In this document: positions 8,625-28,479 of the stretch, piece by piece
How positions within the stretch are numbered: position 1 is the stretch's first letter
Layout: each line of letters starts with the position of its first letter
Assembly: GCA_029204225.1 (NCBI GenBank)
Contig: CM055098.1
Coordinates: forward strand, 11,491,552 to 11,555,551
DNA length: 64,000 nucleotides
Reading direction: 5' to 3'
Source of the DNA: Diphasiastrum complanatum
Taxonomy: Eukaryota > Streptophyta > Lycopodiopsida > Lycopodiales > Lycopodiaceae
Position numbers and translations under genes: made by a program
Notes under the pieces: model-generated
What the model was told of the DNA's origin: nothing
What the model saw: only the letters and a program-made list of their open reading frames with translations
Databases searched by the model: none

Positions 8625-9574
8625 TCATTGATGTATAAGGACAACACATATAAGCTCCAATGATCACTGCAATCAGAAAACAATAAATTTATGAGAATCA
8701 ATGTGAAATCAAAATTCATCTGAAAAATTGAACTCAATAAAATATGAAAAAAATACACTTACTTTGTTATGTATGGGAGCACGAGAATTGGACTCCCCAG
8801 TCTGACGTATTGGAGCATATGATCGTGCAGACTTTTGAAATCAGGAAAATCAAATGCAGCCATGAATTGAAGGGGAAACAATGCTACATCTATAAACAAT
8901 GGGGTCTGGAAAAACTCCATCCAGTGTTGAATGGCCCCATCTCCTACATTGTCACCTAACATTCTATCCCTACTTTCTAATTCACCTATATCTAATTTAG
9001 AAAGGGGAAGACCAGCATTGGTCTTCGGCATCTTAAAACTATATCTTGGACCTAAAGCTTTAAGATATGTGTTCAACAATTGGTCATACTGTACATATTG
9101 AGGAGTATTTACAAAGGCAAGTGCAGGGGGTGACGGAAGTAATACAAATAAACCACAAAAAGAATTGTCATTCAAAATTGATTCTACCTTTACATTTACA
9201 AAATCATCTAAATCATTTCCTAGAGCAGGAGGTGGGGAACTAATATTTATGGGAGTAGGAGGAGACAGAGATTTTGAATGAGAGGAAGATCTAGCAGGAG
9301 AAGTTAATAGTGGAGTTCTGGGAGGAGAAGAAGGAGACTTAGGAGGAGACTTGGGAGGAGATTGCCTAGCAGATAGAATCTCATTTAGAGAAGATGGCTT
9401 TGAAAAATCCCTCGCTTTATTAGGAGGGTCATGAGACCTCTTCTTCTTTGAAACACTCCCGTTCTGTATACGAATAACAAGCCGAGATGGTTGAGATTGC
9501 TTTTGTTCTCTCCTCTCTGAATCTTGTTTTGGAGGAGAGGAAGCAGCAAGTCTAAAGTACTCTGCTCTTGGCAT
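8625..9574 (-). CDS. Ulp1/C48-like cysteine protease, partial
   Basis: The first exon runs from the ATG at 9574 down to 8763. It encodes a Ser/Pro-rich basic linker (about residues 1-120, with repeated PPKSP motifs) and then an alpha-helical domain. The domain has the layout of the front half of a Ulp1/SENP (C48) fold: a short acidic stretch, RMLGDNVGDGAIQHWMEFF, and a strand ending SPILVLPYIT. The exon ends in a consensus donor (AAA|GTAAGTG). A matching acceptor (TTGCAG at 8667-8672) joins in frame to give PYITNDHWSLYVLS, which carries the HW motif around the catalytic His of this family. I could not find the Asp and the Q-x(n)-Cys that should follow, so the gene is truncated or has further unrecognised exons. 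Ulp1 domains cleave SUMO-like modifiers and occur in several plant DNA transposons. The 5' end overlaps the histone-like exon in another frame. Confidence 0.6.
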
Positions 9575-9889
9575 GGACAACTGCAACAACAGTATCTAAA
9601 AAAAATTTCACTTGGAAATCCTCATATGCAATGTGCAGCGTCTCTATTGCCGTTACAATCCATCTCACATCTGCAGATAGACTTCTTGTAACCTGTCTGA
9701 TGGATCTCTGTATGTGAGCTTTCGAAATCAGAAGATTATTTGTCTTCTGTAGCTTTCGAATATCCTTGAGCCAGGGTGGGTCTCGTCTTTTGCCCCTTTG
9801 CCTAGGAGGGGGGGTTAGACGAGGCGGTGGTGGTGCATTTTCTTGACCCCCTCCTGTGATTAGGACTCCACCAGGGTGGACTCGTGCTA
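9552..9889 (-). CDS. Divergent histone H3/CENH3-like exon
   Basis: Open frame of about 112 codons, probably entered from an upstream exon (acceptor-like TTAAGTAG just before it; no Met inside) and ending in TAG at 9552-9554. After a Gly/Pro-rich basic leader (RQRGKRRDPPW) it follows histone H3 almost residue for residue: KDIRKLQKTNNLLISK (H3 EIRRYQKSTELLIRK), then IQRSIRQV (H3 FQRLVREI), ADVRW (H3 TDLRF), an A...L..AYEDFQV helix (H3 A...LQEA.E.YLV), then FFLDT and VVHAKSRVL (H3 LFEDT...AIHAKRVTI). The W after R and the EDF are features of centromeric H3. The H3 N-tail lysines are absent. The frame stops just after HAK. The final H3 helix seems to continue in the overlapping frame (EYFRLAA), as if one frameshift separates this exon from the Ulp1 gene. 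A host CENH3 would be far more conserved, so I infer an accessory or captured histone fold. Confidence 0.7.
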
Positions 9890-11631
9890 TCTACTTAAAT
9901 TAGTCCACGCCATTAGTATCCAATAGCGGATCAGTGCGCGATGGAGGATAACTCAGGTTTAGAGTTCAGGTTGAGCACGTCCAACCGATACCTGAAATAA
10001 ATCTAACCGATAGTTGGTAGCAACTGCACGCGCGCGAGTAAAATCTGATGGAAGGAAGTTTGCTTCGAGCGCGGTGAATCGATATCATATAGATATAGAG
10101 AATAAAAAGAAATTTAAGCAAACAAATTTTAGCGTCGTCTGTTTGTTTATATAGTGAAAATCCAAAATGATTGCAAAAGCGGGGGTTTGGATGTCCGAGG
10201 CTCGGATTTCTTTGAGATATTCAGATGCTTGTCAATCAAATCAAATTAAATATCAATCTTTCTTCAAAATGATTAGTCGATAATAACCACCACAATTAAT
10301 CAAAACAAAAGTATGGTCACATCTACAATTTATTGCTGAAATTGACAAGGTTAAGCTATAAATATCTGACCTTTCTTATATCCAATCGTAATAATTTCGA
10401 AAAATTCCAACGGTCATTATTTCACCCAATTGCGAATCGACACGCATATATAGAATGTGAAAATCAGAGGGGATATTTTCGCATGTTGAACCGATATTGG
10501 AAGATAATATGAATGATCAAAGCTTGACTCGATAATTTCTCCTTAGTTGTGGACAGTATGAAGAGTCTATTGAATCAAGCTTTGATCATGCAAAATACCC
10601 TTCAATAATTTTGAAAAAAATTCAAATTTTTTTTCCCTACAATAGTGATTCGACGCATGCAGTCCAGGTGAAAAATCGTTGTCTTCTCCACAAGCGCGCT
10701 GATCCGATATCTGAGACGCACTGAATATATATTGGAGCGCATTATGAACACCTTATGAAAATGTTCTGAATGAACATTATCTCAAAAGAAAAAATCTCGT
10801 CTTTACGGTCCTTAAATAAGAAGAAAGTCTGTAATGATCCTCCTTGTATACATTTTTCAATGTTGTCCATTTAATATTTGTTTATTAGTTGTTTAACGAT
10901 GATTCGGTGAGGCTAGTGATAAACTATTTAATGTATAACGGCGCGGGAACATATTCTAGGATCAAGGCTAATGATGATTCGTAGAATCTAGTGATAGACT
11001 ATTTAATGTATTCCGGTGTAGGTACAAATTTGTCTCACTCTGATTGGTGGATAAATATAGGTTGTGTTTCTCAATTTATTATTTGACAATTGTATGACTG
11101 CGATCAATAAGAATTGGCTATAAATATGCGCATCTTTCTCTATATTTCGATTCCATGATCTTTCATTCTGAACTCACTAGTCATCTTGTTTTCTTTCTTT
11201 CTCAAGATATCGGATCGATGCGCGCCTTCCCATACAATGCACGGTCAGATTCATTCATGCGCGCTGAATCGATATCAACCTCTTCTGACGTGTGCTTGCG
11301 AAAAATTTTATTCTCATCCTAACGATATCGGATCAACGAGCGCACTGTGGTTCATTCCTCTACCAATATCATTCTGTCGCGTTGAACCGATATCAGGTTC
11401 AATATGGCTAGTTCCTCCATGTCCTCCGATAACAAACTTCTAGATTTTTGAATGCCAGTGACATTTCATCTGAGAAATTAAAGTATTTTGTGAGTTTTTT
11501 TTTTTGCTCCCTTCGATATCGATAAGCTACTTTATGAAAATTGTTATAATTTAATTTCTTATCTTGATAATTTTTCTCAGATTATTAGTATTCATGTTTT
11601 GGATATAGATAGTTTTTGTTTTCTTCATTTT
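9890..11631. promoter_or_regulatory. Divergent intergenic region with CGATATC motif array
   Basis: Non-coding spacer between the minus-strand H3-like/Ulp1 unit and the plus-strand H4-like gene. It contains GC-rich islands built on GCGC-xTGAATCGATATC or its complement, at about 10067-10088, 10692-10720, 11205-11226, 11256-11279, 11321-11345 and 11375-11400. The last four alternate in orientation, and same-orientation copies are about 117 bp apart, so a small inverted pair has been duplicated in tandem. There is also a short inverted repeat around AATGATCAAAGCTTGA at 10511-10590. The layout suits a bidirectional promoter or transposase-binding subterminal repeats. No TATA box can be assigned with confidence. 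Confidence 0.5.
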
Positions 11632-12952
11632 CAGGACCTTGTGCATTCCCAACCATCCTCTAAGCATAAACACAATAAAAAGTATTCTAACCTGCATGAC
11701 CATTTCAAAAGAAATATATATTGTGATATCCACAAAAGAATACCTTGCCTTATAATCAAAGGAATGGCTTTTGTCTTTTACATATCTGCTGAAATTCCAG
11801 ATTATGAGTATGTAGAATCTTCAACTGTTCCATTGATCGAAGCATCTGCACCTGTTCCAGTTGATGTAGATGATGCAAATACTGATACAGGGGTTGAAGC
11901 TGAGGCATCTATGGCTTCAGATTATCAAAAAACTCTTCCTCATTCTATAATCCTCTCTGATTCTCTTCCATCTGCATCTCTTGTTAATCAATTAACTCTA
12001 CTTGATGTTCCCTTATATTTTATAAATACTGAAAGTTATATTTCATTTAATGATATAGAAGATGTTTTGAATTTGAGAGAGGATGAACTCCTCTCAATAT
12101 TTTCTCAAAATTTATCAGAATTTTTCGACATTGTTGATTACACATATGATGACCTTGAAAGTGAAATAGATTACGATAAAGATGGCAATTGGAAATCTGG
12201 CAATGAGGCCTTGGAGGCCATGATTGAAAAATCTAAAGCCTATGAAAAAACTTTGCCTACAGAGGAGGAATTTTTGGAATTCCAAAAAAAATATCCCCCA
12301 AGGCCTAGATATATCCCCTCCGGAAATGTAGAGGCCATTGGAGGACATGACATTAGCAGAGCAAACGTTGTTGAATACAACGATTATGATCTGGTACGTA
12401 GATATTATATCGGTATTGATATTGTTCAGTTTTCTTATTTCAAACATTGTGTTAAAGTATGAGTTTGCAGTGTTATGTATCATTCTAAATCTATTTTATT
12501 TTCTCATTTACAAGATGCTATTGAAATTGATGCCTTTGGTATGAGACATGGAGGCGTCCGAGGTGTATCAGCTAGGAGAAAGGATGTGTCTCTATCTCAT
12601 TATCTGAAAAAACTTTCAAAACAATGAAATTTGTATATATCATTCATCTTTTAATCCATATGCAACCACTGTCATTATGGCCATCAAATCATTATCAGTT
12701 TGTTTAGGAGGCCATAAGTACGCAAGAGGAACATATAAAATAATTTTTGTGAAAAGGGATTTGGCTATTAAGATATTGGGTTATACTCCAAATGAGACTA
12801 AAAAAAGATCATCTGCAATGGCCCTTTATTCGGGTTACATTGATATGAGCAAAAGGAAAAATTTAGAATTTTTGGATCCATATGAGAGGAGATTATTTTT
12901 TCATGACAATACCATTCGTCTGAATCTTGAAGAGGATGATGAAGATAATTAA
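11632..12952 (+). CDS. Acidic protein with H4-like histone-fold stretch
   Basis: Exon one (about 11632-12397) follows a TTTTCAG acceptor, so an upstream exon is likely. It encodes an acidic region rich in Asp/Glu, with DYTYDDLESEIDYDKDGN and a KYPPRPRY segment. A GT-AG intron (12398-12514) joins in frame to an exon starting AIEIDAFGMRHGGVRGVS, which lines up with the H4 helix LARRGGVKRIS. After a one-base excess in the A-run at 12607-12612 the frame continues with LKNFQNNEI, like H4 LKVFLENVI. A Tyr and a TT...I.A...L helix follow at the same spacing as H4 YTEHAKRKTVTAMDVVYAL. The tail (12730-12950) has TYKI and AMALYSGYID, which vaguely recall H2B, and ends in EEDDEDN. Without removing the extra A the reading frame stops at 12625, so this copy may be dead or mis-sequenced. 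The H4 assignment is by eye. Confidence 0.5.
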
Positions 12953-13269: not shown

Positions 13270-14769
13270 TTACATCCGTAGAAAAAAATATAAGCCTGAA
13301 TGAGAAAAGTACCAGATAATGATATAGATTCGCACCACGTAATGAGTAACGTTGTCTTTTCTCCAACAATCATGTACAGATTTTACAAATGTGGAGCAAT
13401 GATTTTGCAAAGTCCTCATATCTTCTGATGATAGGTTTTCTTTCCTGATAAAACCTATGAGTTTGTCTAAGTTGGTCCACACTTGTCCCTTTTCCACTCG
13501 ATTACTTCCTTCCAGTGTTCGTGTGGCTTGAACAATTTCTCTCCAAATTTTGTATCTGACACTTGATTTTTTGCATGTGTGATTGGATAAGAATCTTCTT
13601 GCTTTAGCACCTCCAATTGATGGCTTATTAGGAACGTTTCTTTTTTTCCCGGAGAGTCTGTCACTTTTTTCAATCGTGACATTCTCTTTATGTAGTCCTG
13701 CATTTGACAGAACTATTTCCAGCCTCCTAATTGCTGCTTTAGCCACAGACTCCGGTTTATGATTCCATGCTAGTAGAATATGCAGGTAAATAAGTTTTCC
13801 AATAATACAAACCTCAGCATGCAATGTGCATATGTGAACATTTTTTAATGGAATTGACAGAACACTTTTTATATTTGGATCTTCAGCTTCTCGTGTTGGG
13901 CCAGTGTTTGTTGATCGTCCCAAATTCATATTGCAGCAATCCTTCATGCAATAAAGACATGGATGCTTTGATGTTGTCCCATGAGAGACATTATACATAC
14001 ATTTTAATGTTTTCAAATCCCCTGCAAGGTGCCATTGAATTTGAAAACTTCCATGGTTTTCGACTGTAAATTTCTCACCCTCCAAATGTCTCTTTATAAT
14101 CTTGCCATAATTTGTTCTTGAAAATATTCATGAAAGTATTTTATGGTCCTCTTTCAAGACCTGTAGAGAAGCAAGTAATGCATGACACGTCAATAAAAAC
14201 TGGCAAGGTATGAATTGTTAACAACGATATTCTAAATGAAAATTGAAATGTATACTTGGAATGCCGCCAACCACCATATGTGATTTTCTGATTGAACACT
14301 AAACGTTTGATCATTTGCATCTAAAATTTTGTTCATCAAAGTGACACTCACTCGTTCCAACTTTTGACCCTTGATGATTTCAGATTCATCCAATTTTATT
14401 ACAATAATGATCTTTCCATTTACTTGATGTTCTTCTAGTTTATAGAATTGAATAATGTATTTTAGAACATTTTCAATATCAAGGAAAATATTATTGCAAT
14501 TGTTCCAATTGAGCTCACCATATTCTGATTTGTATAATTCAGTTATACGGACTGGTTGACCGACTACTTTGAACATTCTGTCATTATAATAATTTCTTGC
14601 TAATCTTACCCGATATGGACGCAGAAGATAAATTTTCTTCACCATCACTTGGGAAAAAACTTCTTTAACTATTCTAAAAAAAGTAGAATAAGCATTTAGG
14701 CTAATTCCAGATACATCACATGCACCTTGTATCACATTTGCATCCAAATATGATTGAACCTTAATCAAA
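13270..14769 (-). CDS. Putative DDE/RNase H-fold transposase-like protein
   Basis: Two large minus-strand open segments: about 14769-14232 and about 14085-13270. The first ends WLAAFQ before a possible donor (CAA|GTATAC). The second begins near GEKFTVENHG. The first carries a strand with an acidic residue in VIKLDESEIIKG, then VSVTLMNKI. The second carries WHLAGDLKTLKCMYN followed by a Cys pair, HPCLYCMKDC, and then basic sequence. The order (strand-Asp, later hydrophobic GD-K, then CxxC) resembles RNase H-fold transposases of uncharacterised eukaryotic DNA transposons, including those with an inserted zinc-binding motif. No third acidic residue can be assigned safely. A stop and frame change lie between the segments. 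An uncharacterised host protein remains possible. Confidence 0.4.
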
Positions 14770-14794
14770 TAGTCTCTGCAATTTCATTTTTCAT

Positions 14795-18415: not shown

Positions 18416-18592
18416 TAAATGTGATACAAACTTTCTTAGTCAAAGGAAGGTAATCCAGGGCCAGAAGTACATGATTTGTATGTTTAGTATCGTCCTACAG
18501 ATGAAACCTGCCAAATCAGAAGTTTGATATGTCATCTAAATTCGATGTGCTGGATGAACCTCTCTCTTTTTCATCAATATGCAACGCAGAAG

Positions 18593-18830
18593 TACGACTG
18601 CTCAGGATCCTCTTTAACTTATGCGCGTGGATCCGATATTGAAGCATGCGATATCGGATTGGAGCACGGATGTACAGCTGCTCGGAATTTTCTTTAGCTC
18701 GTGCGCTTGGATCCAATATTGGTACGGACATGCGATATCGGACTGGAGTGCGGATGTACGACTGCTCGGGTTTCTTTTCAGCTAGCATGCTTGGATCCAA
18801 TATTGGTACGGATATAAAAAAAGAAAGAAT
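18593..18830. repeat. Tandem array with GGATCCGATATTG / GATATCGGA units
   Basis: Three diverged units of 80-84 bp. Each contains GCGC-TTGGATCCAATATTGG and then GCATGCGATATCGGA; GGATCC occurs at 18629, 18709 and 18793. The core resembles the CGATATC motifs at 10-11.4 kb. The open minus-strand frame across it is a translation of the repeat, not a gene. Confidence 0.7.
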
Positions 18831-27010: not shown

Positions 27011-27018
27011 TATTATAC

Positions 27019-27294
27019 CCTTTTGACATCCAACTGCACGTATCGAACAGGAGCTCCAAAGGCAAAATTGTCCACATTAACAAAATGAGCTCCAGCAAAA
27101 TCCAATATGACACCATCTTCTCGGCAGATACCCGCATGCCCTATGTAGGGCGCTAGCCAAGAAATAACAATCAGAGGTGTCCACACCAAACAACATGGGA
27201 ACCTAGCACTTTCAAGATTTATGGGGATCGCAGCACCAACCAACAACATACCTTCATCTGGCAGACCTTTCTCCTCCTCTGTACCTTGATCCAT
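27019..27294 (-). CDS. RTE1/TMEM222 family (DUF778) protein, one exon
   Basis: Minus strand. ATG at 27294, then MDQGTEEEKGLPDEG, a hydrophobic stretch, ARFPCCLVWTPLIVISWL, APYIGHAGICREDGVILDFA, GAHFVNVDNFAFGAPVRYV and QLDVKR, ending at a donor (AGG|GTATAA). This is the conserved front half of the DUF778 family. Arabidopsis RTE1, a Golgi/ER membrane protein that acts with the ethylene receptor ETR1, and animal TMEM222 belong here. The frame is intact. The second half of the family (the Cys-rich N-C-H-S-F-V-A region) is not visible anywhere downstream to the left edge, so either a very long intron follows or this is a captured single exon. I cannot tell RTE1 from its paralogue RTH. Confidence 0.8.
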
Positions 27295-28479
27295 AGGTGT
27301 TTTGCAAAAGTTGAAGCAGACAATCTTGATCTCCAAGAAACTGACCAAGTTATTTTTACAGTTCAAACGCCATAATACGTTAAGGTTCTAGATGCTCATC
27401 GTATAATTGTCACCTTTGAATGTTGTGTGGAACCAAATGGCTTCAAATATGATGATATAGGGTTGAGTTAAGTTCTACTTTAGAGAATAATGTGAATGGA
27501 TTAGTATCTAGTGGATCTCGACTTATGGATGTAAAGACGCCCATGCCATCTCAGGTCTTTCAATTTTGCCAAATATGAAAGCAATTTAAGTGATAGCCAA
27601 ATGTTGAAAAAATTCTTGAAAATTTTCTTCTAATATATAGCAGTAGATCTATATCGATGCAGGATTGGTAATTCCTACAGTACGGTTAATTTCCTTTGAA
27701 TTGTGATATGAACCGATTTTTAAATGTTGAACCTGAGATTGAATCATTTACCTTCTTCACAATTTTTAGGAGGTTCCGTCCCCGGCTACTTCGAAGAAAG
27801 CAAAATCCTTCTCAGATCTCAAATGGGTAGAGAGCTTTTGGTTTTTAATGGGACTGGAGAGACCTGCAGCAATCAAAGAAGACCGGTGTGAAACCGGCAA
27901 AATCAAGTTCAGGGTCATTATGCTGAATCCTGATAATCTGAGTCTTACAATCATGAAGAGCACGTCTTGTTCCTGATCCAAAATGACACGCATCTCGGCG
28001 ATTGCATCAGTTTCGCTTGACATATACCAGCTAAACACAGATAAAACACACAACGAAACACAAAATGCTACATTAATATGAAGAAGACAAAACCTAGAGT
28101 CAAAACACAAACACTAAACCATGAAAAGGACAAAAAAACAGAGCGAAAACACAAAAGATTATGTTACTGAAGAAGACGAAACATTAAAAGTATACCTATA
28201 TTATTGCAAGAGAGAGAGAGAGAGAGAGAGAGATACACACACACACAGACAGACCAATCTTTTTCACTTCTGCCATAGAGAATAAAGATTTTTGATTTGC
28301 GATAGGCTGCTAGACAACATTAAGTTTAGACTGAGAAGCCATATGTCTCTTCCAAAGGGGGTAGATTCTCTTTAGCCTGTATTAACAAATCCATCTGTTT
28401 AGCCATCTGATCAGTAGAAATCAATGTTCTGCGGTGATTTTGGATCACTTAGGGGGGCGAAGTTCTTTCTCAAACTCAC
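27295..28479. other. Unassigned, exon-like stretch at 27.8-28.1 kb
   Basis: A minus-strand open stretch (about 28030-27766) starts after a good acceptor (GTGTTTAG) and reads SSETDAIAEMRVILDQEQDV. It could be another captured exon but I recognise no family. A (GA)n tract lies at 28208-28233. Confidence 0.3.

What the first reader, a model, noticed from the sequence alone, without database searches (positions are those of the whole stretch)
9552..9889. Divergent histone H3/CENH3-like fold encoded beside a protease gene
The minus-strand frame follows H3 from the alpha-N helix through alpha-2 and loop 2 (IRKLQKTNNLLISK, QRSIRQV, ADVRW, AYEDFQV, FFLDT, VHAKSRV) with near-constant spacing. R-W in loop 1 and E-D-F in helix 2 are features of centromeric H3. 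It is far too diverged to be a normal host H3, yet the core frame is intact. A histone fold outside the conserved gene family, in a transposon-rich stretch, is unusual. The match is direct reading; the accessory role is inference.
Basis: partly seen in the sequence, partly recalled or inferred. Interest (0 to 1): 0.85.

Follow-up and report, generated by a model that had tools for sequence, protein, structure and literature searches.

The report
Truncated, highly divergent histone H3 relic
A stretch of what looks like plant DNA encodes a strongly changed relative of histone H3 that lacks its last helix; the kinship is real, but it is more likely the remains of a fast-evolving copy than a working histone gene.

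Summary
Minus-strand frame 9555-9890 (112 codons) matches Pfam Histone (E 3.2e-10) and PDB H3 chains (E 4.7e-11); the best of 1000 shuffles of its core scores 9.7 bits against 51.4. It follows H3 gaplessly for 68 residues, 26 identical, from alpha-N to loop 2, then stops: alpha-3 is missing and no alpha-3-like stretch above background was found in the window. The frame holds no methionine; one spliced start fits, as 8 of 500 shuffles also do.

Simulated neutral decay of H3 gave an open frame with equally conservative changes in 1 of 5000 runs, so it probably diverged mainly as a protein. W and E-D-F point to CENH3; the uninserted loop 1 does not; the tree cannot decide. The "protease" next to it has no Pfam support, and its HWxL motif is no commoner than chance.

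Best reading: relic of a fast-evolving, CENH3-like H3 copy, truncated here, possibly carried by a mobile gene cluster. The host genome could not be searched, so copy number and the host's true CENH3 remain unknown.

The parts
9555..9890 (-). open frame of 112 codons with the H3-like domain; bounded by TAG on both sides; no methionine
9567..9770 (-). 68-residue stretch that aligns without gaps to H3 residues 48-115 (end of alpha-N, alpha-1, loop 1, alpha-2, loop 2)
   Evidence: PDB match to residues 48-116 of H3.3
9992..10088 (-). candidate first exon (ATG at 10088), joined in frame to the H3-like frame; inferred, not shown to be transcribed
9854..9991 (-). candidate intron of 138 nt (donor score 7.12, reached by 73 of 3275 GT sites; acceptor 6.0, reached by 266 of 3846 AG sites)
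   Evidence: 8 of 500 shuffles give a model as good
10146..10154 (-). TATA-like CTATATAAA upstream of the candidate start
   Evidence: one of two on this strand in the window
8762..9595 (-). 278-codon open frame, Ser/Pro-rich then a stretch that looks like the start of a C48 (Ulp1-type) protease; overlaps the H3-like frame by 41 nt in another frame
   Evidence: no family match
8667..8762 (-). candidate 96-nt intron (AAA|GTAAGT ... TTGCAG|TG) that joins the previous frame to ...NDHWSLYVLSL
9922..11394 (.). eight copies, on both strands, of an 18-bp motif like GCGCGCTGAWYCGATATC, between and within the leaders of two apparently divergent genes; relation to the H3-like frame inferred from position only

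Best explanation
It is a truncated member of the histone H3 family in a plant genome: the remains of an H3 copy that evolved fast under constraint on its protein, most like a centromeric H3 (CENH3), and then lost its end, so that the present frame cannot make a complete histone fold. How it would have worked: the intact ancestor would pair with H4 through alpha-1, alpha-2 and alpha-3 and enter nucleosomes as CENH3 does. The present copy lacks alpha-3, so the most likely state is a relic without histone function. Shown here: homology, divergence, missing alpha-3, conservative pattern of change. Inferred: CENH3 rather than H3 ancestry, loss of function, and carriage by a mobile gene cluster.
For: Histone match. 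Gapless alignment over 68 residues, 26 identical to H3.1, 27 of 70 columns to human CENP-A and to Arabidopsis CENH3, 28 of 69 to rice CENH3. Neutral simulation from H3.1: 280 of 5000 stayed open at this identity, and 1 of those 280 had a substitution score at non-identical sites as high as observed; by count of conservative changes alone 28 of 280 did. End branch 2.67 against 2.44 for Drosophila CID in the same tree. No alpha-3-like stretch above background downstream or anywhere in the window (best 21.0 against 70 for H3 itself; best downstream on the strand 16.8). The GT at the end of the frame is a poor donor (1207 of 3275 GT sites score as well). No methionine in the frame. Codon-usage score of the frame no better than that of other frames.
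Against: An in-frame spliced start with TATA box can be drawn, as if a gene were still there. The frame is open over 112 codons, more than neutral decay favours. CENH3 ancestry is not established: loop 1 has the H3 length and grouping with H3 is not rejected (p-AU 0.088). The single-sequence models do not reproduce the histone arrangement.
Confidence: 0.5

Rival explanations
1. The H3-like domain is the N-terminal part of a gene carried by a plant mobile element, with a Ser/Pro-rich linker and a C48-like protease domain behind it. In this copy the two parts lie in different frames. It would bind or mimic nucleosomes and so steer integration or silencing, while the protease strips SUMO or a similar tag.
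For: Same strand, 41-nt overlap; plausible intron in the protease-like part; an 18-bp motif array upstream, as expected of an element's own binding sites (13 matches in the window, 0.52 expected, 8 of them here); unclassified open frames at 11-15 kb with no Pfam match at E<=0.1. Capture of Ulp1 domains by plant MULEs is described in PMC13317346 (passages seen).
Against: No family match for the protease part. HWxL occurs 4 times in the window and 4.25 times on average in shuffles. No third protease exon found by pattern. No convincing terminal repeats. No other copy in the window. The motif pattern was composed after seeing the sites.
Confidence: 0.2
2. A working, very divergent H3 variant of the host, transcribed from the TATA box near 10150, whose alpha-3 lies in an exon outside the searched stretch or is dispensed with.
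For: Spliced start model; open frame with conservative substitutions.
Against: No alpha-3 found in the window; poor donor at the end of the frame; looser splice thresholds give models in 43 of 200 shuffles.
Confidence: 0.15
3. An ordinary H3 gene copy decaying neutrally.
For: Loop-1 length of H3; grouping with H3 is not rejected.
Against: Neutral runs from H3.1 reach an open frame with this conservative a pattern in 1 of 5000 (substitutions only, starting codons chosen at random).
Confidence: 0.1
4. Chance resemblance.
For: None beyond the low identity.
Against: Scores 48 to 51 bits against at most 9.7 in 1000 shuffles; E 3.2e-10 in Pfam.
Confidence: 0.01

Closest known systems
Plant CENH3 / CENP-A (centromeric H3)
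   Same: W at the start of alpha-2, E-D-F in alpha-2 (as in Arabidopsis A-E-D-Y, typed from recall), fast divergence, I-R-K-[LF]-Q-K in alpha-N
   Different: loop 1 shorter by one (rice) or two residues (Arabidopsis, human); no alpha-3; no MARTK start
Canonical H3.1/H3.3
   Same: gapless alignment over 68 residues, loop-1 length
   Different: 26 of 68 identical, tail unrelated, no alpha-3
Ulp1-carrying plant transposons (Kaonashi/VANDAL, MULEs; PMC13317346, passages seen)
   Same: a protease-like frame follows on the same strand, in DNA rich in mobile elements
   Different: no Pfam C48 match, no MULE transposase match, and no histone part is mentioned there ('histone' 0 times)

Membership tests
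Histone H3 family | significant match to the histone profile | tested here: met
   E 3.2e-10, above the curated cut-off
Histone H3 family | alpha-N, alpha-1, loop 1, alpha-2, loop 2 in order | tested here: met
   gapless alignment; helices 3-16, 21-32, 37-73 of the core model equal H3 46-59, 64-75, 80-116 (numbering)
Histone H3 family | complete histone fold including alpha-3 | tested here: not met
   frame stops after HAKSRVL; no alpha-3 found
Histone H3 family | histone arrangement in the predicted structure | tested here: inconclusive
CENH3 | W in loop 1/alpha-2 | tested here: met
   D-V-R-W
CENH3 | longer loop 1 than H3 | tested here: not met
   a feature of the compared CENH3 sequences, stated as a family rule from recall
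CENH3 | groups with CENH3 in a tree | tested here: inconclusive
   0 of 10 branches well supported; p-AU 0.088 for grouping with H3, 0.496 for grouping with plant CENH3
CENH3 | location at centromeres | not testable with these tools
   needs cytology or ChIP
C48 (Ulp1) protease, neighbouring frame | Pfam Peptidase_C48 match | tested here: not met
   no family at E<=10 for the spliced 157-aa part (its first letter was mistyped, L for V), none for the whole frame at E<=1
C48 (Ulp1) protease, neighbouring frame | His-Asp-Cys triad | tested here: inconclusive
   HW present; no Cys motif found downstream by pattern

The most novel reading that the evidence does not exclude
A plant mobile element carries its own CENH3-like histone domain, fused or coupled to a C48-like protease, to address centromeric or silenced chromatin; this copy is damaged.
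Probability: 0.15. Interest if true: 0.85.

Novelty: new member of a known kind. Interest (0 to 1): 0.4.

Why it matters
H3 is among the slowest-evolving proteins, so an H3-family frame at 26 of 68 identity is uncommon. If it is a CENH3 copy, it records duplication and loss in a family under centromere drive. If it belongs to a mobile element, it would be a route by which such an element could act on chromatin. As a lone truncated copy it is a modest finding.

Tried and rejected
Searches for relatives: three scans of viral contigs (H3-like frame; frame 13273-14127; protease-like frame) confirmed none. The host genome search (genome search, own, PF00125) was tried 18 times and never answered. 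NCBIfam gave nothing for 5 frames (a bacterial and archaeal library). No plant genome collection was on hand.

Structure: the full frame and the core were each folded from a single sequence. Foldseek found no histone in the PDB and nothing at E<=0.001 in BFVD (104 matches at E<=10, 50 rows seen). No control fold of a true H3 cut at the same place was possible, so this does not count against the histone reading.

Splice start: the first run of the shuffle test found no model in the real sequence because the acceptor cut-off of 6 lay just above its score, and 5 of 300 shuffles passed. I lowered it to 5.9: one real model, 8 of 500 shuffles. The thresholds were thus chosen after seeing the model; the splice weights are approximate and recalled.

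Codon usage does not favour the H3 frame (0.016; other frames -0.066 to 0.062). For the protease-like frame one search was one base off; repeated in the right frame it scores 0.18, below one antisense frame at 0.20.

Terminal repeats: 41 candidate pairs of 13 nt, none convincing. The long arms are mostly microsatellites. The second motif cluster near 18.6 kb lies behind what reads like the start of a copia element (about 17.2-17.4 kb, read by eye), so I do not use it to extend a mobile element.

Literature: ten searches. Those that joined CENH3 or H3 with transposon and Ulp1 or pseudogene terms returned 0 to 5 papers, seen as listings with the starts of abstracts; only passages of PMC13317346 and PMC9210943 were seen. 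Neither the passages nor the listings mention such a thing; this is a limited library.

Full report
What is there. On the minus strand, 9890 to 9555, lies an open frame of 112 codons bounded by TAG on both sides and without a methionine. The frame matches Pfam Histone with 40.8 bits and E 3.2e-10 and PDB H3 chains down to E 4.7e-11. With the tail removed the match stays (E 2.9e-10). The best PDB row is 4h9s_A, named H3.3, whose aligned letters carry R-W and E-A-F in the region in question. Controls: 1000 shuffles of the core reach 9.7 bits at most, where the core has 48 to 51, and the next of 743 open stretches in the window has 6.9.

How far it goes. The alignment runs without gaps over 68 residues, H3 48 to 115, with 26 identities to H3.1; to human CENP-A and Arabidopsis CENH3 27 of 70 columns and to rice CENH3 28 of 69, each with a gap in loop 1. 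It ends at HAKSRVL and a stop. Alpha-3 is missing. A search for alpha-3-like stretches found nothing above background between 6.5 and 9.6 kb nor in the six frames of the whole window (best 21.0 where H3 itself scores 70; best downstream on this strand 16.8). The only GT at the end of the frame that I scored is a poor donor: 1207 of 3275 GT sites score as well.

Is it decaying H3? I simulated neutral substitution of H3.1 down to 26 of 68 identity. Of 5000 runs 280 kept an open frame, and one of these had substitutions as conservative by BLOSUM62 as the real ones; counting conservative changes alone, 28 of 280 did. An earlier run over 86 to 88 codons gave 54 of 2000 open from H3 and 57 of 2000 from CENH3 at about this identity. 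So most of the divergence probably happened while the protein mattered. The model has no indels and uses random starting codons. The score test was run only from H3.

H3 or CENH3? Against: loop 1 has the length of H3. The tree of 13 rows has no well supported branch; grouping with H3 gives p-AU 0.088 and with plant CENH3 0.496. I lean to CENH3 but cannot show it.

A possible gene. One start can be drawn: ATG at 10088, exon to 9992, intron 9991-9854, then the H3 frame; a TATA-like box lies at 10154-10146. Under the thresholds, set after seeing the model, 8 of 500 shuffles give a model as good; with looser thresholds 43 of 200 do. It is a lead, not evidence of expression.

Neighbours. A 278-codon frame (8762-9595) overlaps the H3 frame by 41 nt in another frame. 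It is Ser/Pro-rich and ends in a stretch that, joined over a 96-nt intron with a GTAAGT donor, reads ...ILVLPYITNDHWSLYVLSL, like the first half of a C48 protease by eye. Pfam does not support this, nor do PDB sequences, and HWxL occurs as often in shuffles. Upstream, 9922-11394 holds eight copies of an 18-bp motif on both strands; the whole window has 13 matches with up to 3 mismatches, 0.52 expected, with a pattern made after the sites were seen. On the plus strand a second, apparently divergent gene begins near 11404 (read by eye). The frames at 11-15 kb have no Pfam match at E<=0.1. The window carries copia and gypsy pieces and an RTE1-like exon, which is why I call it plant; the species is unknown.

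Verdict. The claim of an intact fold is not: alpha-3 is absent. CENH3 kinship is plausible and open. The best reading is a truncated relic of a fast-evolving H3 copy (0.5); a mobile-element gene with an H3-like part is the most novel reading that the evidence leaves open (0.15 to 0.2). Host-genome copy number would decide, and could not be had.

Noticed in passing
9922-11394: Eight copies of an 18-bp motif near GCGCGCTGAWYCGATATC on both strands; four of them (11206-11394) alternate in strand about 60 nt apart just before the ATG at 11404.
   Followed up: partly
11404-12949 (+): Apparent gene with a TATA-like CTATAAATA at 11118, start MASSSMSSDNKLLDF and an acidic product in open frames 11494-12459 and 12608-12949; no Pfam match at E<=0.1.
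   Followed up: partly
13273-14783 (-): Two open frames that by eye look like a transposase core (..KLDES....AGDLKTL..C..C..); no match in Pfam or NCBIfam; the frame 13273-14127 also none in PDB sequences at E<=10.
   Followed up: partly
27016-27387 (-): Exon of an RTE1-like gene (PF05608, E 1.4e-32).
   Followed up: no
18589-18815: Tandem repeat of about 80 nt whose units carry GGATCCGATATT-like words similar to the 18-bp motif.
   Followed up: partly
10495-10607: Imperfect hairpin, arms of 51 nt, 75% complementary, 11 nt apart, between the two apparently divergent genes.
   Followed up: no
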